Positions 11,140 to 51,424 of a stretch of DNA of 64,000 nt are shown here, piece after piece (position 1 is the first letter of the stretch; each line of letters opens with the position of its first letter). This DNA is from Deltaproteobacteria bacterium (GTDB taxonomy: Bacteria; Myxococcota_A; Polyangia; DRWM01; JAAZOP01), in contig JACRCX010000084.1 of assembly GCA_016218815.1 (NCBI GenBank), positions 1 to 64,000 on the forward strand, read 5' to 3'. Below the pieces are notes generated by a model. The model saw only the letters and a program-made list of their open reading frames with translations. It was not told the DNA's origin and did not search any database. Both the position numbers and the translations under genes were made by a program.

Positions 11140-12765
11140 ATGAGGGGATACATCGCTTCGTCCGGGTGGTTGCCGTTCCTCTCCGTCGTCGTCGCCTGCG
11201 CGCCGCCAGACGATGAAACGTCCGACGCTGCCGTCGACTTGTCCGTTGAAGCGGACGCCGATGCGTTCGCGGAGGCGGAAGCCGACGCAGACGCAGACGC
11301 AGATGCAGATGCAGACGCAGACGCAGATGCAGACGCAGATGCAGACGCGGACGCGGACGCGATGCCTGACGTTCCCCCCACCTGCGGCTTCGGCTATGAG
11401 ACGGAGTTCCACTCCTGGACGCCGCCGGCGGGCACGAAGTCCGCGGCCGCGGCAAGGCTCCCCGCGGCGACACCCGCCGCCGCCCGACCCTCCGGACTCC
11501 CGCGCGACGAAGCACCCTTCGTCCGCTTCGAGCCGCCTCCCTCGAACATCGCGGACATTGCCCACGTCGAGCCGCTTCCGCCCAGCCTGGAGCGGATTGC
11601 TCGCCCGAATCCGTGGGCCGGACCCTGGTTCGACATCGTCATGCCCGGCTACGCCGACACGATGCCCCTCTTCGGCCGGGCGCAAGCCTGGTCCGAGCCG
11701 ACGCGCTGCTACGAGACCCCCGTCGGCGTGCGCCTCCTGTCCGAGGACGAGGCGTGGGACCTCTATCGCCGGATCGCCGAGGCCACCACCGGCGTCCCCT
11801 TCGATGCCTCTCCCGGCGTCCGCTCCGTCGTCGGCTTGCGCGGCGCCTATCCGGGCACCTTCGCCTGGCACGGCAACGCCCCGAACCATTTCAACGACAC
11901 CCTCGTGCTGCTCTGGGTCGACCCGGACGGCACGCGCCACGTCCGCGAGTTCCCGGTCAACACCGACACCGGCGCGGTCGACTTCGGCGTCGACAGCTCG
12001 TCCTCGCTCCGCGCGAATCGCCGCTACCACTACGTCAATGGATGGCACCGCACCTACAACGCGCTGCACATCGACGAGGACGGCTACCGCGTCCGCGACG
12101 ACACCAACAACAACGGACACTGGGACAGCGACCGCAACGGCTGGCTCCCGCCCCTGGGCGAGGCCGATTACGACCGGGCCGGTGGCGGCCACAACATCCA
12201 CATGGGCTCCGTCGACGGGCCCCTGGGCACCGCGCTCGTCGATGTCTGGTCCGCGGGCTGCCAGGTCATCCCCGGCATGGCCAACTGGACCGAGTTCATC
12301 AACAACGCCTGGACCGTCGAGGGCGATCCCGCAAATTACTTCCTGATCGATGCGCGCGACATCCCGCCCGAGGTCTGGACCGGACCGTGCACGCCCGACG
12401 GCACCCGCGCTTGCCCCTTCCCCGTCCCCGGGTTCCCCTTCGCGGCCCCCGGCGACACCTCGACGGCGCCGAGCGACGAGTTCGATCTCTACAACTGCTC
12501 CACCGCCGACGAGTCCGGGCCCGAGGTCTTCTACGTCTTCACCACCGACGTCTCCGGCACGCTCTCCGTCTCCATCGATGCGACCGACCCCGTCGACCCC
12601 GACGTCCACCTGCTCGAGGGCGCCGACGCGAACGCCTGCCTCGCCCGCGCCCACATCTCGTTCGAGTACTCGCTCACCCCCGGCCGCTACTTCATCGTCG
12701 TCGATACTTTCGTCGACGGCGTCCCGCTCTCCGGCCCCTACACCCTCCACGTCGACCTGCGATGA
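11140..12765 (+). CDS. Lipoprotein with (Asp-Ala)n stalk, L,D-transpeptidase-like signature and PPC domain
   Basis: The product has 541 residues. The N-terminus is a short signal peptide ending VVACAPP (lipobox VAC), followed by acidic residues and a stalk of Asp-Ala dipeptides (residues 47-74). The central region contains HNIHMGS (about residue 352) and SAGCQVIPG (about 371). That His...Ser-x-Gly-Cys pair and spacing recall the YkuD-type L,D-transpeptidase catalytic motif, so peptidoglycan cross-link chemistry is possible, but the rest of the fold is not clearly YkuD. The last 110 residues resemble a PPC (bacterial pre-peptidase C-terminal) beta-sandwich ([16 protein letters not shown], ending [10 protein letters not shown]). 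Its stop overlaps the next start by four bases (ATGA), so the two are co-translated. Confidence 0.6.
11278..11361 (+). repeat. Second hexamer repeat coding for (Asp-Ala)n
   Basis: Tandem GAYGCA units run in frame and change to GCG at the end. The Ala codon is GCA here but GCC in the repeat at 2071-2199, so the two arrays expanded independently rather than being copied from each other. Confidence 0.9.
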
Positions 12766-38232: not shown

Positions 38233-41914
<3,682 letters not shown>

Positions 41915-42221
41915 GATCGGCTCTCCCGTGCCATCCGTCCCTGCGGACCTCGGCCGCTCGACTCATACCGTAAGGTAGAGGAAATAGCTAGTGCATAGCA
42001 TCTCGTCTTCTGTGCGGCGATCGGACGTGGAACACTTGGCCAAGCCCCCGAAGATACGCAGGATCGTCGCCGGGAAACCAGGGGAAGGCAGGAAGGATAA
42101 CCTGTGGAGTCCTTGGGACCGACTCCCCACGACGTGGAGAACTCCGCACCCTCTCCAAGGGTACCATGATCATCTCCCCCCACGTTGTCCCCACGGAGGA
42201 TCGGCATCAAGACGCACGGCT
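41915..42221. other. dnaA-dnaN spacer with imperfect DnaA-box-like words
   Basis: The spacer holds no gene. Several nine-base words match the DnaA box TTATCCACA in 7 of 9 positions: TTGTCCCCA (42185-42193, forward) and TTCTCCACG (reverse of 42133-42141), with a GGATAA word at 42095-42100. In Bacillus-like chromosomes oriC can lie in this spacer, but the boxes are weak here, so origin function is inferred mainly from gene order. Confidence 0.35.
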
Positions 42222-42285
42222 CAGGGCAAGCCCCTTCGGCAACCTCAGGGTAAACCCCTTCGACTGGCTCAGGGCAAGCCAAGCT
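42222..42285. repeat. CTCAGGGCAAGCC repeat at the end of dnaA
   Basis: CTCAGGGYAARCC occurs three times with a period of about 24 bases (near 42222, 42246 and 42270). The last unit supplies the stop codon and final residues of dnaA (minus strand). Similar CGACT-CTC(A/G)GGGCA words occur at 51465-51483, so it is a dispersed element. Confidence 0.75.
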
Positions 42286-43636
42286 GCTTGCGAAGGCTCG
42301 CGACGATGTTGCGGGTGGGAGGATCCCGTTCGAGCAATTCGACGATATGACGACAGGCGGCCATGACGGTCGTGTGGTCACGACCACCAAAACGCTCGGC
42401 AATCGCCGGGAACGGCTGGCGCAAACCTTCGCGCGCCAGGTACATCGCGATGTGGCGCGGCAAAGTCACCGAACGCCGCCGGCTGGGCCCCCGCAGGTCG
42501 GCCAGGTGGACGCCGAAGAGATTGCACACCGCGCGCTGCAGCTCGTCGACCGTGCAGGCCACCGGCGCCGCCGGCAACAGGATCGCCAGCACCTCCTGGG
42601 CCAGTCCGACGTCGATCGGACGCGCCATGATTTCCGCCTGCGCCGCCAGACGACCCAGCACACCCTCCAGCTCGCGCACACTCCCGCTGACCCGCGAGGC
42701 CACGAGTTGCGCGACCTCGTCCGGCAGATCGATGCCCTCGTCCTCCGCCTTGCGCCGGAGGATTGCCACCCGCGTTTCGTACTCGGGCGGCTGGATGTCC
42801 ACGATCAGGCCCCAGAGGAACCGCGTCCGGAGACGTTCCTCGATGTCCGGGATCTCCCGCGGCCACTGGTCGCTGGTCATCACGATCGGCACCCGGCGAT
42901 CGTACAGCGCGTTGAAGATGTGGAAGAAACGCTCTTGCGTGCCGTCCTTGCGCCGCAGCACGTGAACGTCGTCCAGGAGCAACAGGTCGCATTCGTCCCG
43001 GTACTTGCGATCGAACGCTTCTACCGAGCCGCCCCGGACCGCGTGCACGAACTCCTCGACGAACCGCTGCGTCGGCAGGTACGCGATGCGCGTCGCCGGC
43101 CGCTTGAGCATGACCGCGTGCGCGATCGCCGACAGGAGATGCGTCTTGCCCAGACCCGACGGTGCGTAGATGTACAACGGGTGCGTCGCCTCGCCCAGGC
43201 GTGCGGCGATCGCGCGCGCCGCCTCCGCCGCGAGCTGGTTCGACGGGCCGGTCACGAAACGATCGAACGTGTAACGCGGATGGACCGCCTGCGGCGCCGC
43301 ACTGTCCCGTGCACGCACGACCGGCACCGGCGGCACCGCCGGTGCCGCAAGCTTCTCCACCGGCGCGGTGACCTCCAGCGCGATGTCCACCGGCGTCCCG
43401 ACCTGCGCCCCCAGCAAGGCCTGCAGGCGCACGAGATACCGATCCCGGATCCACTCGCGACAGAACTCGTTCAGCACTGCCACACGGGCGATCCCGTCGG
43501 TGATGCTCACCAGCCGTGCCTGCCGCAGCCACAAATCGAGGTTCCCGCCGTCCGAGGCCGCTTCCACCGCCCGAACGGTCTCACCCCAGATGGCATTCTC
43601 GTTCGTCGTCACGACCTCCACACCCGGCACGACCAT
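42269..43636 (-). CDS. dnaA: Chromosomal replication initiator DnaA
   Basis: The product has 455 residues. N-terminal helices (domain I-II) precede the AAA+ core with RYTFDRFVTGPSNQLA, Walker A APSGLGKTHLL, Walker B LLLLDDVHVL and sensor regions. The C-terminal domain IV carries the DNA-contact signature FGGRDHTTVMAACRHI. The start at 43636 (MVVPGVEV) is the first Met in the coding-like stretch. Minor divergence (Ala-Pro-Ser in Walker A in place of the usual Gly-rich loop) is still compatible with ATP binding. It leads the dnaA-dnaN-gyrB set and its last codons lie in a dispersed repeat. Confidence 0.97.
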   Translation of the reverse strand: MVVPGVEVVTTNENAIWGETVRAVEAASDGGNLDLWLRQARLVSITDGIARVAVLNEFCREWIRDRYLVRLQALLGAQVGTPVDIALEVTAPVEKLAAPAVPPVPVVRARDSAAPQAVHPRYTFDRFVTGPSNQLAAEAARAIAARLGEATHPLYIYAPSGLGKTHLLSAIAHAVMLKRPATRIAYLPTQRFVEEFVHAVRGGSVEAFDRKYRDECDLLLLDDVHVLRRKDGTQERFFHIFNALYDRRVPIVMTSDQWPREIPDIEERLRTRFLWGLIVDIQPPEYETRVAILRRKAEDEGIDLPDEVAQLVASRVSGSVRELEGVLGRLAAQAEIMARPIDVGLAQEVLAILLPAAPVACTVDELQRAVCNLFGVHLADLRGPSRRRSVTLPRHIAMYLAREGLRQPFPAIAERFGGRDHTTVMAACRHIVELLERDPPTRNIVASLRKQLGLP

Positions 43637-43716
43637 GATCGTGGCCCGACCTCCGCACCCCCCGATCCCCAGTCCTTCGATGGCTTGGCCGCGGTCGCTT
43701 CCGCGACGGCAGTCGC

Positions 43717-43745
43717 AACCTACGGGCATGAACGATCGGTTTCAA
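43717..43745 (-). promoter_or_regulatory. Candidate dnaA promoter
   Basis: On the minus strand TTGAAA (43745-43740) and TAGGTT (43722-43717) are 17 bases apart. Transcription would start near 43710, leaving a leader of about 74 bases to the dnaA ATG. Confidence 0.5.
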
Positions 43746-43839
43746 GCGTTGAACGGTCGCGGACGCTCCAACCCACGGAAACGCCGCCGATCCGGCGCGC
43801 GCGTGGGGATGGACGGGCGAGGCCTCCAAGCGGGCGAAC

Positions 43840-43885
43840 GGATGTTCAGATTATCCAACAGGTGGAAACAAATGACGAAACCTGG
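43840..43885. other. AT-richer segment with DnaA-box-like words; candidate oriC part
   Basis: TTATCCAAC (43851-43859) matches the DnaA box in 7 of 9 positions, and GTTTCCACC (reverse of 43861-43869) matches the TTTTCCACA variant in 7 of 9. They lie back to back in a stretch of clearly lower GC than its surroundings, 100 bases upstream of the dnaA promoter. The 590-base gap between dnaA and the next gene (43637-44227) has no supported gene. This is a plausible unwinding/initiator site, not proof. Confidence 0.4.
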
Positions 43886-44156
43886 ACCGGCGGGCCGCCG
43901 TCGCACGGAACGCCGTCCCATGCGGGGCCGCATGTTGGCGAATCGGACGGACCAGAATTGATGCGCCTCCCCGCTCCGCACATCGACGGGAATCCGATGA
44001 CTGCGTGCTCCGCGCCACGCGTGACGCGCGGGTGGCGATGGCATGGCGCTCCGGAAGAACCCCCGTGCACCGGAATGCGATGGCGCCGAGGGTCGACCAT
44101 CAGGATGCTCCTCACCCCGCGGCGCGGACGATGCGAATCGGCCAAAGGCCGAAAAC

Positions 44157-44184
44157 TGGACACGGCGCCACGGGCCGGTACACT
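44157..44184 (+). promoter_or_regulatory. Candidate promoter for the 44228 barrel gene
   Basis: TGGACA (44157-44162) and TACACT (44179-44184) are 16 bases apart; the -35 box matches five of six bases. It predicts a leader of about 36 bases with a GGGAGGA ribosome-binding site ahead of the ATG at 44228. Confidence 0.45.
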
Positions 44185-44227
44185 CGGACCCGTGCGTGCC
44201 CCAAAGCGGCACGGGAGGATCAAGGCG

Positions 44228-45124
44228 ATGAGGCGTGGCGGCGTTGGTTGGAAGATCGTCCCCGTGATCGCAGTCCTGTCCGGCTACCCTGCGGCAAGCG
44301 AAGCGCAGGCCGCTCTGGTGCAGTCCGTCGGCGAGTCGACGACGCCCAGCTCGCTCGGCATGGCCGACGCCCAGGTCGCCAGCGGCATCGCCACGTCCGC
44401 CATGTTCATCAACCCGGCCGGGATCGCCATGGGCCAGGTCTTCCACACCGAAGGCTGGTGGGGCTACTCCGTCAACCTCGATCGCCACGTCGCCGGCGTC
44501 GCCGCCACCGACTCCACCACCCCGGTCGCCGGCGGCCTCGGGTTCACCTACACCTATACCGGCATCGAAGCCGAGCATAACAACTTCTACGACCTGCGCA
44601 CCGGCATCGCCATGCTCTTCGCCGACATGCTCGCCGTCGGTCTCAACCTGAAGTACATGCGCGTCGACTACGGCGAGGGCGTCGAGACCCCCGACGGCTC
44701 GCTCAACGACTTCTCCATGGACGCCGGCGCCCTCTTCACCTACGACCGCTTCTTCCTCGGCGTCGCCGGCACCAACCTCACCAACCTCGATCATCCCATG
44801 GCCCCCCTCGCCCTCATCGTCGGCGGCGGCCTCCGCCTGGGACCCACCCGCTTCGAGTTCGATGCCACCCTCGACTGGTCGACCTACGACGAGGTCGCGC
44901 CGATGGGCCAGAAGTACGCCGTGGGCGGCGAGATCCTCATCGCCGACGCCTACGTCATCCGTGCCGGCTACCGCTACGAGGACATCCCCGACGTCCACGG
45001 GATCGCCGCCGGCGTCGGCTACGTCAGCTCCGCCGTCGCCCTCGACTTCGGCTTCCAGCAGGATCTCAGCGGCCAGCGCAGCGACTCCCGCCTCGGCCTC
45101 TCCTTCCGCTACTTCGTCAACTGA
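44228..45124 (+). CDS. PorV/FadL-type outer-membrane beta-barrel protein
   Basis: The protein has 298 residues. The signal peptide (about residues 1-26) ends at SEAQA. The early mature region SLGMADAQVASGIATSA then MFINPAGIAMG is the signature opening of the PorV/UPF0164 and FadL-like barrels, in which NPAG marks the first strand. The rest alternates strands (GLGFTYTYTGIEAEHNNFYD, VIRAGYRYEDIP, LDFGFQQDLSGQ) and ends with the barrel-type C-terminus LGLSFRYFVN. Functions in the family vary (lipid uptake, shuttle for secreted proteins), so none is assigned. It is convergent with the protease-TonB gene, with 19 bases between the stops. Confidence 0.8.
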   Translation: MRRGGVGWKIVPVIAVLSGYPAASEAQAALVQSVGESTTPSSLGMADAQVASGIATSAMFINPAGIAMGQVFHTEGWWGYSVNLDRHVAGVAATDSTTPVAGGLGFTYTYTGIEAEHNNFYDLRTGIAMLFADMLAVGLNLKYMRVDYGEGVETPDGSLNDFSMDAGALFTYDRFFLGVAGTNLTNLDHPMAPLALIVGGGLRLGPTRFEFDATLDWSTYDEVAPMGQKYAVGGEILIADAYVIRAGYRYEDIPDVHGIAAGVGYVSSAVALDFGFQQDLSGQRSDSRLGLSFRYFVN

Positions 45125-45143
45125 TCCCGCGCGCACCCCGCCC

Positions 45144-48137
45144 TCACTCCAGCGAGAACCGCACCGGCAACTCGAATCGGCACCCCCCCACCGGAAACGG
45201 CGCCGCACCGCGCACCGCCTCCAATGCCGCCTCGTCCAGCAGCGCGGCCCCGGACGACGACGCCACCCGCGCCTCCGCCACCGTCCCGTCCTCCGCGACC
45301 GCGAACGACACCTCGACCGTGCCCGAAACCCCCCGCCGTCGCGCCAGCGGAGGATAGCGTTTCCGCGCGTCGACCGCGGCCCTGACCTCCTCGCTCGCCT
45401 CCCGGCAGGGATCGGGATTCGCCGCCGGTCCCGCAGCGGCCGCAACTCCCGCCCCGGCTCCAGGATCGGCCCCGGGATCGCCGAACGAAGGAGCGTCTCC
45501 GGGAGGCCCGTGCCCATCCCCCACTTCCGAACCGCGCCCTTCAGGGCGCGGCTCCGACGCGGTCCCTGCCGCGGGCTGCAGCACGCTGCGCGGATCGGAA
45601 ACCCCGACCTGCGCGGGGGCGGGCTGCGAACCGACGACCGCCTCCCGCGCGCCCGCCTCCACCGGGACCACCGCGGCCCCCGCGAGCGCCGCACGCCGAG
45701 CCTCGCGTGCCGGCGGCCGGTGCGGCTCCGCGGCGAGGTCCGGCTCCGCCGGAACGGACGGCGGCACCGCAAGCTCCAGGTGCGGCGCCGGCTCCTCGGG
45801 TCGCGACGCCGCCGGCGCCGGCACCGGCTCCTCGGGCGCCAGCAGGCTCACCGCAACGCGCGTGTCGCGCCACGCGGGCGGCGAGCCCGGCAACAGCAGC
45901 ACCAGCGGCGCGACGAGCAGTGCGTGCACCGCCAACGATGCCGCGACGAACGGCCACCGGCGCGTACGATCCTCCGCACGCCGCCCCACGACGACCGTCC
46001 CACGGCACAGCACGCACGCCAGGACGAAGAGCAGGCCAAACGCGGCAGTACCCGTGCCGCGGCACGGCGCGATCGAGCACCCGCCCGGCTGCCGCGCCAC
46101 CGCGCACACGCTCGCCGTCTCCGGCCGCGCGACGCCGGCTGCCCGGGCCGTGAGCGTCGCGCATTGTCCGGGCGCCAGCGTCGACGTGTCGACGACGAAC
46201 GTGCTCACCTCGCCGCTCGCCGATGAAGCGACCCGCAGCGGGAGCCCCGCCTCCAGCGATGCAGCCGCCGCCGAACCGGGCACCCCGCCGTCGAGCCGCA
46301 CCGCGGCCGCCGCCTCGATCGTCGAGCTCCCGCCCGCCTCCGTCTCCCGCCGGGCCACCGACAGCACCAGCCGCGCACCCGACTCCGACGCCGGGGGTTC
46401 CGGTGCCGCCAGGATGCCCGCCGCGTCCAGGATCCCGAACCCGGACTGTGCCTCCCACGCGCCATCCGCTCGCGCCGCCGCCCGCAGCCGATCCCGGATC
46501 GCCCGCGGATGAAGCCACCGCTCCCGCTCCATCAACAAGGCGACCGCGCCGGCGACGTGCGGCGCTGCCAGCGAAGTCCCCCGCCCCGCCGCCCAGGTGG
46601 TGTCGACCGCGGTGGCTTCCTGCCCGCCCGGACCGAGCGGCAGCCCGGCCGCGGACGACTGCGCCGCCACGATCCATTCGCCCGGAGCCAGTAGATCGGG
46701 CTTCAGTCGCCCGTCCGCGGTCGGACCGCGCGCCGAGAAGCTCGACGTCGCACCGGGTATCGCCGACGGATCCTCCACGAGCGCCCCCAGGCGGTTCGTC
46801 CAGGACGCCCGGACCGTGACCGAGCCCACCGCCAGTGCTCCGCGCGCGGTCGCCGGAATCGACAGCGTCACGTCCTCCCGCACCGCGCCCTCCAGCCGGA
46901 ACGGGAAGAAGGTCGTCGTCGCCTCCGCGGAAAGCCACGCCTCCACGACGGCCGGACCGTGCACCCGCAGCTCGTAGCGCCCCGGCGGGATGGAGCCGTC
47001 GTCGCCGCCCGTCCACGCCGCCACGGCCTCGGAGGCGACGTCCCCCTCTCCCTCCCCCAACTCCAGCCGGAGCGCCGCACCACCGCCCAGGGGCGTTTCC
47101 GACGAGGGCTCGGCCGGGTCGACCCGCACGATCGAACCGTCCGGGAGGACCACCTCCAGTGCGAGCGCGCTCCCCGCCGAGGACCAGAGGTCCACGATGG
47201 CCACCGCCGCCGCGCCCTCCGCGGGTCCGCCGTTGGACGGCACCACGAGCGTCGTCGCGGAACTCCCCGCCCCGCGCGGATCCAGCCTGGCGTGCACGGC
47301 CGACCGGCCGGCGTTGCCCGCCGCGACGACCACGGCGCGCCCCCCCGGCCCGTCCCACGCCAGCTCATCGATCACCCCCTCCAGCCAGCTCGTTCCGTCG
47401 TGCGCTCCAAGCTGGCCGCCCAACGACAGGTTCGCGACACACGGCCGCCCGGCCAACTCCGCAGCCGCGAACACGAAGCGCAGCGCGTCCGCGACGTCCA
47501 CCTCGTCATACCGCCCGCCCGGCACGCGGTCCGCCCGGACCACGATCAGCTCCGCCCCCGGCGCGAGGCCCACGAAGGGCTCGGCGCTCCCCGCCGCAAT
47601 CGATGCCACCCTCGTCCCGTGCCCGCTCTCGTCCGGCGACGGCCGCGGCGCCGACGGATCGCGCACCGCCGCCGCCAGCTCGTCCCCCGTGAACAGCGCA
47701 TACCCCAGATCGTCGAGCGGCCCGCCGGTGCCGCGGCTCGGTTGCGTCATGTCCAGGTACCATGCGATCCGCGGCCGCCCCGCCGCGTCCAGGAACGCAC
47801 GGTGCGCGAAATCGACCCCCGAGTCGATCACCGCGACGTACACGCCCCGCCCCGTCCAACCCTCCTCGCGCGCGACGTCCGCGCCCACGAACGGCCCGGA
47901 ACGGTCCAGCGCCGCACCCAGCACTCGCGACCGATCGACCCGCACCAGCCCCCTCTCCCGGAAACGCACCTCGTGGCCCAGGAACGGCGCCGCCGCGGCC
48001 GCCGAAATCGACGCAACATCGTCCGCCCAGACCGCGAAAGGAGAACGCACGTCGACCTCGGCCCGCGCCGGGACCGCCGAAACCAGAAGCAGCAGCGGGC
48101 CGAGGAAACGTCGCACGGCCTGATGGTGCACCGGCAT
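45144..48137 (-). CDS. Subtilisin-like protease - TonB fusion
   Basis: One frame of 997 residues joins two proteins. Residues 1-26 are a signal peptide. Residues 95-560 are an S8 subtilase with the triad Asp105 (AVIDSGVDF), His173 (SGHGTRVAS) and Ser at about 521 (GRGTSLAAPHVAG). At about 685-710 comes a MYXO-CTERM-like segment (GGCSIAPCRG, then LLFVLACVLC and basic residues). After a short basic loop (RRAEDRTRR) a second hydrophobic segment, as in TonB N-termini (WPFVAASLAVHALLVAPLV), leads to a Pro/Glu-rich linker. A TonB C-terminal domain (RKRYPPLARRRGVSGTVEVS) ends at the stop. With that topology both the protease and the TonB domain lie in the periplasm. The start is the ATG 48137 (a GTG at 48131 is possible); the ribosome-binding site is weak. 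Confidence 0.85.
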   Translation of the reverse strand: MPVHHQAVRRFLGPLLLLVSAVPARAEVDVRSPFAVWADDVASISAAAAAPFLGHEVRFRERGLVRVDRSRVLGAALDRSGPFVGADVAREEGWTGRGVYVAVIDSGVDFAHRAFLDAAGRPRIAWYLDMTQPSRGTGGPLDDLGYALFTGDELAAAVRDPSAPRPSPDESGHGTRVASIAAGSAEPFVGLAPGAELIVVRADRVPGGRYDEVDVADALRFVFAAAELAGRPCVANLSLGGQLGAHDGTSWLEGVIDELAWDGPGGRAVVVAAGNAGRSAVHARLDPRGAGSSATTLVVPSNGGPAEGAAAVAIVDLWSSAGSALALEVVLPDGSIVRVDPAEPSSETPLGGGAALRLELGEGEGDVASEAVAAWTGGDDGSIPPGRYELRVHGPAVVEAWLSAEATTTFFPFRLEGAVREDVTLSIPATARGALAVGSVTVRASWTNRLGALVEDPSAIPGATSSFSARGPTADGRLKPDLLAPGEWIVAAQSSAAGLPLGPGGQEATAVDTTWAAGRGTSLAAPHVAGAVALLMERERWLHPRAIRDRLRAAARADGAWEAQSGFGILDAAGILAAPEPPASESGARLVLSVARRETEAGGSSTIEAAAAVRLDGGVPGSAAAASLEAGLPLRVASSASGEVSTFVVDTSTLAPGQCATLTARAAGVARPETASVCAVARQPGGCSIAPCRGTGTAAFGLLFVLACVLCRGTVVVGRRAEDRTRRWPFVAASLAVHALLVAPLVLLLPGSPPAWRDTRVAVSLLAPEEPVPAPAASRPEEPAPHLELAVPPSVPAEPDLAAEPHRPPAREARRAALAGAAVVPVEAGAREAVVGSQPAPAQVGVSDPRSVLQPAAGTASEPRPEGRGSEVGDGHGPPGDAPSFGDPGADPGAGAGVAAAAGPAANPDPCREASEEVRAAVDARKRYPPLARRRGVSGTVEVSFAVAEDGTVAEARVASSSGAALLDEAALEAVRGAAPFPVGGCRFELPVRFSLE

Positions 48138-48173
48138 TGACCCGCAGGGCAACCGCGGGGCATGGTGAGGGCG

Positions 48174-49223
48174 ATGGCGGACCAGGCTCGCACGGAAGAA
48201 CCGACCCCGAGACGGCTGCGGGAGGCGCGGCGCAAGGGTCAGGTCGCCCGCTCCCGCGATCTCACCGCCGCGGTCTCCCTTTGGCTCGTCCTGGGCGCCC
48301 TCGCGCTGGCCGTCGCCCCCGCCGTTCCGCTCCTCGTGCAGGCCACCCGGCACGTCCTGGCCGGAGCGGGCTTCGCCCACGACACCGGCCGCGAGGCCTG
48401 GGTCGTCGCCTGGGCCGGACTCGCGCTCCGCCTCGCCGCCCCCGTGCTCCTCGCGGCCGCCCTGGCCGCCCTCGCGGCCGGCGTCGTCCAGGTCGGAGGA
48501 CTCTTCGCGCTCGAGGCCGTGCGCCCGAAGCTGGACCGGCTGGATCCGGCCGCGGGAGCCCGGCGCGTCCTCGGCGCGCGGGGCTGGTTCGAGGCGCTGA
48601 AGTCCGTCGTGAAGTTCGTCGTGGTTGTCGCCGCCTCCACGCTGGCGTCCTGGTCTTCCCTGGCCGACGTCGTCCGGGCCGCCCGCACCGGGGGTGCCGT
48701 CCTTGCCGGCGCCGTCGTGGGAGCCCTGCTGCACCTGGGCCTGGTCGCCGCCGGCCTCCTCCTCCTCCTCGGCGCGCTCGATCTCCTGGTCCAGCGCCGC
48801 CGCCTGCGCAAGGACCTGCGCATGACCCGCGAGGAAGTGAAGCGCGAGCACAAGGAGGAGGAAGGGGAGCCCGCACTCAAGGCCGAGCGGATGCGACTGC
48901 ATCGCGAGGTGCTGGCGCATCGCATGGTCATGGACGTCCCGCGTGCGACGTGCGTCATCGTCAACCCGACCCACCTTGCCGTGGCCCTGCGCTACGACGG
49001 CGAGGACGAGGACGGGGCGCCGATCGTCCTGGCCAAGGGCGAGGGAGACGTTGCCCGGCGCATCGTGGCCGCCGCCCGGGCCGCCGGCGTCCCCGTGCTC
49101 CGCAATGCCCCCGTCGCACGCACGCTCCTGGCTTGCGAGCTGGGCGCCGCGATCCCGGAGCGGCTCTACGAAGCCGTGGCCGAGGTCCTGCGCATCGTGC
49201 TCGACGAAGAGCCGGCCGGGTAA
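48174..49223 (+). CDS. FlhB/SctU-family type III export switch protein, orphan
   Basis: The product has 349 residues from the ATG 48174; an ATG four codons earlier (48162) is possible. The opening EEPTPRRLREARRKGQVARS is the FlhB/SctU N-terminal signature. Four hydrophobic segments lie in residues 35-215. The C-terminal cytoplasmic domain has the autocleavage motif NPTH in VIVNPTHLAVALRY, where Asn-Pro cleavage switches export specificity. Both flagellar FlhB and injectisome SctU fit. No other flagellar or type III secretion gene is in the window, and the protein stands between the protease-TonB gene (divergent) and priA. It is divergent from the 48137 start by only 36 bases. Confidence 0.88.
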   Translation: MADQARTEEPTPRRLREARRKGQVARSRDLTAAVSLWLVLGALALAVAPAVPLLVQATRHVLAGAGFAHDTGREAWVVAWAGLALRLAAPVLLAAALAALAAGVVQVGGLFALEAVRPKLDRLDPAAGARRVLGARGWFEALKSVVKFVVVVAASTLASWSSLADVVRAARTGGAVLAGAVVGALLHLGLVAAGLLLLLGALDLLVQRRRLRKDLRMTREEVKREHKEEEGEPALKAERMRLHREVLAHRMVMDVPRATCVIVNPTHLAVALRYDGEDEDGAPIVLAKGEGDVARRIVAAARAAGVPVLRNAPVARTLLACELGAAIPERLYEAVAEVLRIVLDEEPAG

Positions 49224-49234
49224 GGGAGGAAGGG

Positions 49235-51424
49235 GTGCGGATCGAGGTCGTCCTGCCGCTGGCCCTCCCCGGGACGCTCACCTACCACGTGCCGCCCGAG
49301 CTGGTCCCGCGGCTGCGTCTGGGCGCCCGCGTCGTTGTGCCCCTCTCGACGCGACGCGCCACCGGCTACGTCGCAGCCCTCGACGTCCCTCCGCCGCAGG
49401 GCGAAGTCGTTCTGCGCGACGTCCTGGCCGTGCCCGAAGACGCCACCGGCCTTCCCGAGGATCTCCTGCAGCTCGTCCTGGAAGCCGCCCGCTACTACTG
49501 CGCGCCCCCTGGCGAAGCGCTGCGCGCCGCGCTGCCCCGCTTCGCCGAGACGCCGACCCGCCGCGTGCGCGTCGTCCGCGCCGTCCCGGAAAAGACCCCC
49601 GACGGTCGGCTCGGCCCGCGGCAGCGACGCCTGCTCGTCGCCCTCGCCGAGGTCGGCGAGCTGGCGCTGGACGAGGCCCGACGCTTGCACGGCGCCACCG
49701 CGGCCTCGATCCGCGCCCTGGCGGACAAGGGTTGGGTCGAGCTGGGGGAGCGGGACGCGGTCGATCCCTTCGCCTCCTCCGGCCCGGCGTGCGCCGACCT
49801 CGCCCCGGACCCGAACCCGGCCCAGCGGCGCGCCATCGACGCCGTGCTGGGTGCCGTTCGCGCCGGCCGCTACCGCGGCTTCCTGCTCCACGGCGTCACC
49901 GCCAGCGGCAAGACCGAAGTCTATCTGCGCTGCGCCGCGGAAACGATCGCGCTCGGACGCTCGTGCCTCGTGCTCGTCCCCGAAATCGCCCTCACGCCGC
50001 AGCTCGTCGGCCGCTTCCGCGCGCGCCTGGGCGGGGCCGTCGCGCTCGTGCACAGCGCCGTCGGCGAGGCCGAGCGACGCCGTGCCTGGTCCGCCATGCT
50101 CGAGGGCCGCGTCCGCGTCGCCGTCGGCGCCCGCTCCGCCCTCTTCGCCCCGCTCTCCGGCCTCGGCCTCGTCGTCGTCGACGAGGAGCACGACGCGTCG
50201 TACAAGCAGGCCGATCGCTTCCGCTATCATGCCCGCGACCTCGCCATGCTCCGCGCCCACCACGCCGGCGCCGCCGTCGTCCTCGGTTCCGCCACCCCCT
50301 CCCTCGAGTCGTGGAGCAACGTCCACGACACCAAGCTCGAGCTGCTCCGGCTGCCCGACCGCGCCACGCCGCTGCCCCTGCCTGCGGTTCGCGTGTGCGA
50401 CCTGCGACTGCGGGGCGCCCGTCACCCACGCCACACCTTCCTCTCGCGCGAGCTGGTGGAGGAGCTGGAAGGCACCCTGGCACGCCGCGAACAGGCGATC
50501 CTCTTCCTGAACCGCCGCGGCTTCGCCCCGACCGCGATCTGCTCCTCCTGCGGCACCTTCGTCGCATGCCCCTCCTGCGGCGTCGCCCTCGCCTACCACC
50601 GCGCGCGGGATGCCCTGCTCTGCCACTACTGCAACTTCGAGCGACAGGTTCCGGAGCGCTGCGAGTCCTGCCGCGAGGGCGAGCTGGACCTGCGCGGACT
50701 GGGCACCGAACGCATCGTTGCCGCTGTCGGCGACCTCTTCCCGGCCGCCCGCGTCGGACGCCTCGATTCCGACGTTGCTGCCGGCCCCTCCGTCGAGCGC
50801 GTCCTGGATCGCCTCCGCCGCCGCGAGATCGACATCCTGGTCGGCACCCAGATGGTCACCAAGGGACACGACTTTCCCGCGGTCACGTTCGTCGGCGTGG
50901 TGCGCGCCGACATGGGCCTGCAGGTCGTCGACTTCCGCGCGGCCGAACGCACCTTCCAGCTCCTGACGCAGGTCGCCGGCCGCGCCGGCCGCGGCACGAC
51001 CCCCGGCCTCGTCCTCTTCCAGACCTTCCTCCCCGATCACTACGCCATCGCCGCTGCCGCCCGGCAGGACTACGAAGGTTTCGTCCGCCAGGAGCTGCCG
51101 TTCCGCCGCGAGCTGGGCTACCCGCCTTTCGGACGGCTCGTGCTGCTCCGCGGCGAAGGACGTGATGCCGGCGTCCTGGATGCCGCCATGGACGCCCTCG
51201 CCGCCGAGCTGTCGCCACTGGCCGCTGCCGCGCACGCCTCGCTGCTCGGCCCTTCTCCGGCTCCCCTGGCCCGCCTCCGCGGATTCCACCGCCGGCACCT
51301 CCTCGTCAAGGCCCCGACGCGCAAGGCCATCCGCGCCGTCGCGGTCCGCGCGACAGCCTGGGCCGCGCACGCCGGCCGGAAGATCCGACTCATCATCGAT
51401 ATCGACCCGCTCCACCTCGCCTGA
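49235..51424 (+). CDS. priA: Primosomal replication restart helicase PriA
   Basis: The product has 729 residues from a GTG 11 bases after the SctU stop, with GGGAGGAAGG upstream. The SF2 helicase motifs are clear: Walker A GVTASGKTEVYL, Walker B VVVDEEHDASYKQ, SATPS, FLNRRGFAPTAIC, and GRAGRG in the last motif. The zinc-binding region between helicase lobes has the usual Cys series CSSCGTFVACPSCG, CHYC, CESC. The N-terminus has the DNA-binding 3'BD fold. PriA reloads the replisome at collapsed forks. Its proximity to dnaA agrees with an origin-proximal location. It is probably translationally linked to the SctU gene. Confidence 0.95.
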   Translation: MRIEVVLPLALPGTLTYHVPPELVPRLRLGARVVVPLSTRRATGYVAALDVPPPQGEVVLRDVLAVPEDATGLPEDLLQLVLEAARYYCAPPGEALRAALPRFAETPTRRVRVVRAVPEKTPDGRLGPRQRRLLVALAEVGELALDEARRLHGATAASIRALADKGWVELGERDAVDPFASSGPACADLAPDPNPAQRRAIDAVLGAVRAGRYRGFLLHGVTASGKTEVYLRCAAETIALGRSCLVLVPEIALTPQLVGRFRARLGGAVALVHSAVGEAERRRAWSAMLEGRVRVAVGARSALFAPLSGLGLVVVDEEHDASYKQADRFRYHARDLAMLRAHHAGAAVVLGSATPSLESWSNVHDTKLELLRLPDRATPLPLPAVRVCDLRLRGARHPRHTFLSRELVEELEGTLARREQAILFLNRRGFAPTAICSSCGTFVACPSCGVALAYHRARDALLCHYCNFERQVPERCESCREGELDLRGLGTERIVAAVGDLFPAARVGRLDSDVAAGPSVERVLDRLRRREIDILVGTQMVTKGHDFPAVTFVGVVRADMGLQVVDFRAAERTFQLLTQVAGRAGRGTTPGLVLFQTFLPDHYAIAAAARQDYEGFVRQELPFRRELGYPPFGRLVLLRGEGRDAGVLDAAMDALAAELSPLAAAAHASLLGPSPAPLARLRGFHRRHLLVKAPTRKAIRAVAVRATAWAAHAGRKIRLIIDIDPLHLA

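What the first reader, a model, noticed from the sequence alone, without database searches (positions are those of the whole stretch)
45144..48137. Subtilisin-like protease joined to TonB in a single reading frame
One frame holds a complete S8 protease with triad, a MYXO-CTERM-like membrane segment, a basic loop, a second TonB-type membrane segment, a Pro-rich linker and a TonB C-terminal domain. The two helices would let both end domains face the periplasm. This would place a protease and an energy-transducing arm on one chain. Both pieces are also compatible with two genes fused by loss of a stop.
Basis: partly seen in the sequence, partly recalled or inferred. Interest (0 to 1): 0.8.

Follow-up and report, generated by a model that had tools for sequence, protein, structure and literature searches.

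The report
Protease and TonB in one precursor
A myxobacteria-like bacterium makes a surface-type protease and the energy-transducing protein TonB from one uninterrupted gene, and this turns out to be one of several genes in its relatives in which exported proteins are strung together at a membrane sorting tag where they could be cut apart.

Summary
In detail: window 45144-48137 (minus strand) is one 997-codon frame with a complete subtilisin-type (S8, CspB-like) protease, two membrane helices around a basic loop, a Pro/Ala-rich linker and a TonB C-terminal domain. It is not an assembly error: two same-genus genomes at only ~52% protein identity carry the same in-frame fusion; in the third and closest (78%) a dispersed repeat sits exactly at the junction and the halves are separate genes. 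Standalone orthologues elsewhere in the class stop at the first helix, in a MYXO-CTERM-type tail (Gly-Cys, helix, Arg). So the fusion is a MYXO-CTERM protease plus a TonB gene. Looking wider, about 10% of the MYXO-CTERM tags I checked (12 of 120, six genomes) are internal, and each of these 12 runs in frame into another protein with an export signal; one ORF has three units. The likeliest reading is a tandem secretory precursor resolved at the tag by myxosortase, not a permanent protease-TonB machine. Weak point: the fusion's own tag is degenerate and scores below the MYXO-CTERM model. One published precedent (MXAN_5598) exists. New variant of a known kind.

The parts
45144..48137 (-). single ORF, S8 protease - two-helix hairpin - TonB, 997 aa
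   Evidence: same single frame in G002 and G003
48060..48137 (-). putative Sec signal peptide MPVHHQAVRRFLGPLLLLVSAVPARA (start may be GTG at codon 3)
   Evidence: read from sequence; aligned N-termini in relatives; no signal-peptide predictor was available
46398..47870 (-). S8 catalytic domain with an inserted beta domain (~46908-47279), closest fold CspB/CspA/CspC
   Evidence: Pfam PF00082; Foldseek 4i0w/9pr9 E ~1e-28; phmmer
46086..46382 (-). C-terminal beta domain of the protease
   Evidence: predicted strands 589-680
45984..46082 (-). MYXO-CTERM-derived segment: GC box (46062-46082) then helix 1 (45987-46043)
   Evidence: aligned to the C-terminal tails of standalone orthologues, Cys conserved; but below TIGR03901 and in shuffle range with a local HMM
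45948..45986 (-). basic cytoplasmic loop GRRAEDRTRRWPF; the GTG just before it (45987-45989, codon 717) is the nearest possible internal start upstream of helix 2
45891..45947 (-). helix 2, TonB-type anchor with SxxxH motif (SLAVH, 45924-45938)
   Evidence: SxxxH in all four genus members and in two of four standalone TonBs checked
45423..45887 (-). Pro/Ala-rich periplasmic linker (19% Pro, 23% Ala), poorly conserved
   Evidence: pN/pS 0.66 against G001
45147..45416 (-). TonB C-terminal domain
   Evidence: PF03544 1.1e-17, TIGR01352 4.1e-19; pLDDT mostly 80-96

Best explanation
A tandem secretory precursor. Shown: one frame encodes a CspB-like S8 protease whose C-terminal MYXO-CTERM-type tail runs, without a stop, into a complete TonB. 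Inferred: the chain is exported by Sec; helix 1 and the TonB anchor (helix 2) form a hairpin with the basic loop in the cytoplasm; both end domains lie in the periplasm. A myxosortase then cuts next to the conserved Cys (after lipidation, as proposed for TraA). That frees the protease for the surface and leaves TonB in the inner membrane to be driven by ExbB/ExbD encoded elsewhere in the genome. The covalent joint would be a way of making two exported proteins from one message, not the functional unit. The same layout (MYXO-CTERM, Arg patch, next export signal) recurs in other ORFs of this lineage.
For: One frame in three species of the genus at ~52% identity, with purifying selection on the protease and TonB domains. 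Standalone orthologues (~720 aa) end at the same point, with Gly/Ala-Cys, helix, Arg; four of their tails score 16-22 bits with a HMM built from this genome's MYXO-CTERM tags. MYXO-CTERM tags are abundant in the genus (33-68 per genome, none in 14 control genomes) and myxosortase is encoded (NF040914 over cut-off). In G001 the halves are separate and both conserved, so linkage is dispensable. Twelve of 120 tags checked are internal and each runs into a unit with a Sec or lipoprotein signal. In G002 no ATG/GTG/TTG lies between the Cys box and helix 2. Precedent: MXAN_5598 internal MYXO-CTERM (PMC11980579). ExbB homologues elsewhere in the genome.
Against: The fusion's own tag fails TIGR03901 and is no better than shuffles with the local HMM; it lacks the usual GCGC and dense Arg run, so cleavage may have been lost. 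No proteomic or biochemical data. Helix 1 is weak in G002 and G003. Signal peptide judged by eye.
Confidence: 0.5

Rival explanations
1. A stable chimera: the protease stays tethered by the two-helix hairpin beside the TonB arm. TonB, driven by ExbB/ExbD, either brings the protease to outer-membrane transporters or powers its passage through one, as Oar and its Ton system do for the subtilisin-like protease PopC in Myxococcus.
For: The TonB-dependent transporter Oar and the Ton system are required for PopC secretion (PMC6434023), a functional link between a subtilisin-like protease and TonB. The internal tag is degenerate. The fusion is kept over ~50% protein divergence in three species.
Against: Split in the closest relative with both halves conserved. 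The Cys box is conserved where a mere tether would not need it. PopC has no signal peptide and is not fused to TonB. No TonB-dependent receptor or ExbB among the flanking genes scanned.
Confidence: 0.25
2. Near-neutral fusion by loss of a stop codon: the joint has no function of its own. Because the protease tail ends in the cytoplasm and TonB starts there, the fused chain is tolerated and both halves work, cleaved or not.
For: Junction and linker evolve fastest (pN/pS 0.65-0.66 against G001); a repeat copy at the joint marks a split in G001; most tags stop right after the Arg patch.
Against: Fusion retained in three diverged species; recurrence of the same layout with different partners.
Confidence: 0.17
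3. Two products by internal initiation: TonB is mainly made from an in-frame start near helix 1 (GTG 717 in this genome, TTG in G003).
For: Such codons exist in G000 and G003.
Against: None in G002 between Cys box and helix 2. The long product would still be made because there is no stop.
Confidence: 0.06
4. Assembly or sequencing artefact (lost stop or frameshift).
For: The genomes concerned are draft assemblies (G001 is titled MAG); G001 has the halves in different frames.
Against: Independent genomes at 52% identity show the same frame; nothing odd at the junction in the window. Reads were not available.
Confidence: 0.02

Closest known systems
MXAN_5598 of Myxococcus xanthus (PMC11980579)
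   Same: internal MYXO-CTERM joining an exported N-terminal protein to a second exported protein in one ORF; proposed there to be processed at the tag
   Different: adhesin plus OmpA-type outer-membrane barrel, described as an atypical case; here a protease plus TonB, and the layout recurs in several ORFs and genera
MYXO-CTERM proteins sorted by myxosortase (TraA/MrtX)
   Same: Cys box, helix and basic patch at the end of the protease part; myxosortase in the genome
   Different: tag internal and degenerate, below the TIGR03901 cut-off
TonB energy transducers (PF03544)
   Same: SxxxH anchor helix, Pro-rich linker, C-terminal domain
   Different: preceded by a whole exported protease and an extra helix
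Csp-type S8 proteases (CspB, 4i0w)
   Same: fold and inserted beta domain, intact catalytic residues
   Different: exported enzyme with a C-terminal beta domain and sorting tail; clostridial Csp proteins act in spore germination
PopC-Oar-Ton secretion in M. xanthus (PMC6434023)
   Same: subtilisin-like protease functionally linked to TonB
   Different: separate proteins; PopC has no signal peptide

Membership tests
MYXO-CTERM sorting tag (TIGR03901) | invariant Cys in a short signature motif | tested here: met
   Gly/Ala-Cys aligned in all 13 family members compared, including the four genus members
MYXO-CTERM sorting tag (TIGR03901) | transmembrane helix followed by Arg-rich cytoplasmic patch | tested here: met
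   helix 697-718 predicted, KD 2.34, loop GRRAEDRTRR; helix weaker in G002/G003
MYXO-CTERM sorting tag (TIGR03901) | score over the curated cut-off of 20 bits | tested here: not met
   no match for G000-G003 junctions, orthologue L005 15 bits; local HMM in shuffle range
MYXO-CTERM sorting tag (TIGR03901) | at the extreme C-terminus | tested here: not met
   about 280 aa of TonB follow; met in standalone orthologues
MYXO-CTERM sorting tag (TIGR03901) | cleavage by myxosortase | not testable with these tools
   enzyme present (NF040914 126 bits, cut-off 100), cleavage not shown
TonB (PF03544) | TonB C-terminal domain over cut-off | tested here: met
   64.7 bits, cut-off 24.6
TonB (PF03544) | anchor helix with SxxxH contact motif and Pro-rich linker | tested here: met
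   SLAVH/SVALH/SVAVH in four species; 19% Pro linker. Role of the motif is from general knowledge of E. coli TonB
TonB (PF03544) | N-terminal position of the anchor (cytoplasmic start) | tested here: not met
   preceded by 730 residues in one frame; met in G001
TonB (PF03544) | ExbB/ExbD partner available in the genome | tested here: met
   PF01618 (MotA/ExbB) five matches in G000, one about 1.2 kb from another TonB on C122; ExbD not searched; none found beside the fusion
S8 peptidase, Csp-like | Asp/His/Ser triad and oxyanion Asn | tested here: met
   D105, H173, N275, S522 conserved in four species
S8 peptidase, Csp-like | proteolytic activity | not testable with these tools
   needs an assay

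The most novel reading that the evidence does not exclude
Myxococcota-type bacteria use true secretory polyproteins: several exported proteins are translated as one chain, each joint being a MYXO-CTERM helix whose Arg patch doubles as the n-region of the next signal peptide or anchor, and myxosortase plus signal peptidase release the units in fixed ratio. The S8-TonB gene, the three-unit ORF in G001 and the OmpA fusions in G020 are members.
Probability: 0.4. Interest if true: 0.78.

Novelty: new variant of a known kind. Interest (0 to 1): 0.6.

Why it matters
Bacteria are not known for making several exported proteins as one chain cut at a sorting tag. One case has been noted in Myxococcus as atypical; here the layout recurs, with different partners, at about one tag in ten in the genomes sampled. 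If processing is confirmed, myxosortase would be a polyprotein-resolving enzyme as well as a sorting enzyme, and annotating fusions such as protease-TonB as bifunctional enzymes would be wrong. If instead the chain stays whole, it would be a protease physically coupled to the Ton motor, with bearing on TonB-dependent protease secretion.

Tried and rejected
Assembly artefact: rejected (same frame in diverged genomes). Dependence on a neighbouring Ton cluster: neighbours tested include FlhB, PriA, DnaA, DnaN, GyrB, so no support. Proof that the fusion's own tag is a model-grade MYXO-CTERM: tried with NCBIfam, a local HMM and profile-profile comparison; individual junctions failed, only the family alignment matched, over 10 columns at the GC box (71% probability). 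CPBP protein G000:C81 as the myxosortase: rejected in favour of G000:C127. Class- and order-wide searches with the whole protein failed technically, so spread beyond the 59 genomes is unknown. G001:C31:10421 as a further internal tag: doubtful, repeat-rich tail. G020 L174 (65 aa read-through without export signal): not counted. The genome-contig scan returned only the G001 contig. No paper on a subtilisin-TonB fusion was found.

Full report
What is there. The minus-strand frame 45144-48137 encodes 997 residues without a stop. Pfam finds Peptidase_S8 (6.7e-39) and TonB_C (1.1e-17). D105, H173, N275 and S522 form an intact catalytic set. An AlphaFold model gives a confident S8 domain, a beta domain to about 680, two helices at 697-718 and 729-748, a disordered linker and a confident TonB domain. 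The protease fold is closest to the clostridial Csp proteases, CspB included.

Is it an error? No. Of the 59 genomes searched (G000 included), the three other members of the genus all carry the locus. G002 and G003, about 52% identical, have one frame covering query residues 12-997. In G001 (78%; its contig is JACRCZ010000080.1, titled 'MAG: Deltaproteobacteria bacterium', groundwater) the protease ends at ..RRGGVRAGGGSHR* and TonB lies in another frame, starting inside a copy of the repeat CACAGATGAACACAGATGAACACAGAT. That repeat occurs 32 times in G001, 19 times in G000 and not in G002 or G003. So the simplest history is fusion in the ancestor of the genus and a later split in G001. The frames in G001 are also offset beside an 8-G tract, so a homopolymer-length error or slippage there cannot be excluded. 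Both halves remain under purifying selection against G000 (pN/pS 0.28 for the S8 part, 0.23 for TonB_C, 0.17 for the TonB anchor), while the junction and linker are loose (0.65, 0.66).

Where it came from. In other families of the class the same protease is about 720 aa long and stops after a tail of Gly/Ala-Cys, helix, Arg, which is the tripartite plan of MYXO-CTERM (PMC11980579). The fusion's first helix aligns with that tail, and the Cys is kept in all members compared. The TonB part has its own SxxxH anchor helix and linker and resembles standalone TonBs with frames of 255-287 codons. So this is a MYXO-CTERM protease gene run into a TonB gene.

The sorting background. The genus has 33-68 MYXO-CTERM matches per genome and 14 control genomes have none. 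A CPBP protein in G000 (C127) and one in G002 (C598) pass the Mrt_core myxosortase model. The fusion's own tag, however, does not pass TIGR03901 and with a HMM of this genome's tags scores within the range of shuffles; four orthologous tails in other families score 16-22 bits. It is therefore MYXO-CTERM-derived and degenerate; whether it is still cut is open.

The wider pattern. I read the sequence downstream of 120 MYXO-CTERM matches in six genomes. Most stop within 0-24 codons. Twelve run on in frame into another protein with an export signal: G000 2/37, G001 4/29, G003 2/14, G020 4/30, G014 0/5, G046 0/5 (for example RRRFRSAAPLAALACVLAASSAQG-A, or RRRRRASLWSPLVAVAVGLLAAGC). Two further read-throughs, one in G001 and one in G020, lack a clear export signal and are not counted. 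One G001 ORF of 1815 codons holds three units, each ending in a MYXO-CTERM-type tail, with beta-helix and GH123-N-like domains (the latter tested in the G000 counterpart, which holds two units). The C8/C77 joint is also shared by G000 and G001. Three of the four in G020 lead into OmpA-domain proteins, like MXAN_5598 of M. xanthus, which the myxosortase authors noted as atypical and proposed to be processed at the tag. In G014 and G022 the same protease family is fused through its tail to a lipobox and a YkuD transpeptidase, a second partner for the same tail.

Mechanism. Shown: one frame, conserved in three species; domain content; homology of the joint to a C-terminal sorting tail; presence of myxosortase and ExbB homologues; recurrence of the layout. 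Inferred: Sec export, hairpin topology, Cys modification, myxosortase cleavage, separate work of the two products. The alternative that the chain stays whole gains some interest from PopC, a subtilisin-like protease whose secretion in M. xanthus needs a TonB-dependent transporter and the Ton system (PMC6434023), but the split gene in G001 argues that linkage is not needed.

Limits. Larger class-wide searches failed technically. The 120 tags are those listed and fetched, not a full census. Signal peptides were judged by eye. No reads or proteomics were available. The G handles bear no organism names.

Noticed in passing
L128 (G001:C79:3500-14500), minus strand, ORF ending at 2310: 1815-codon ORF with three exported units, each ending in a MYXO-CTERM-type tail; the G000 counterpart L127 has two units.
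   Followed up: partly
L009:1411-4146 (+) and L010:472-3207 (-): Same S8 family fused through its sorting tail to a lipobox and a YkuD L,D-transpeptidase in two species of another family.
   Followed up: partly
L198, L202, L203 (G020): Internal MYXO-CTERM followed by signal peptide and OmpA-domain protein, as in MXAN_5598 and the TraA-TraB layout.
   Followed up: partly
L002:3650-3690 (G001): A dispersed repeat at the protease/TonB joint supplies the ATG of the separate TonB gene; an 8-G tract lies just upstream.
   Followed up: yes
L126 (G000:C8) and L134 (G001:C77): The joint of this precursor contains repeat-like ALSERSESKG residues between the Arg patch and the next lipoprotein signal.
   Followed up: no
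window 44327-45121 (+): Convergent gene next to the fusion, present in the same place in at least G001 and G002; exported beta-rich protein by eye, no Pfam match.
   Followed up: partly
window 38236-51421: The locus lies in the replication-gene region: GyrB, DnaN, DnaA on one side, FlhB/YscU-type protein and PriA on the other.
   Followed up: yes
window 11140-12765 (+): Exported-looking protein with a long Asp-Ala (DADADA) run; similar runs precede MYXO-CTERM tags in L127/L128.
   Followed up: no
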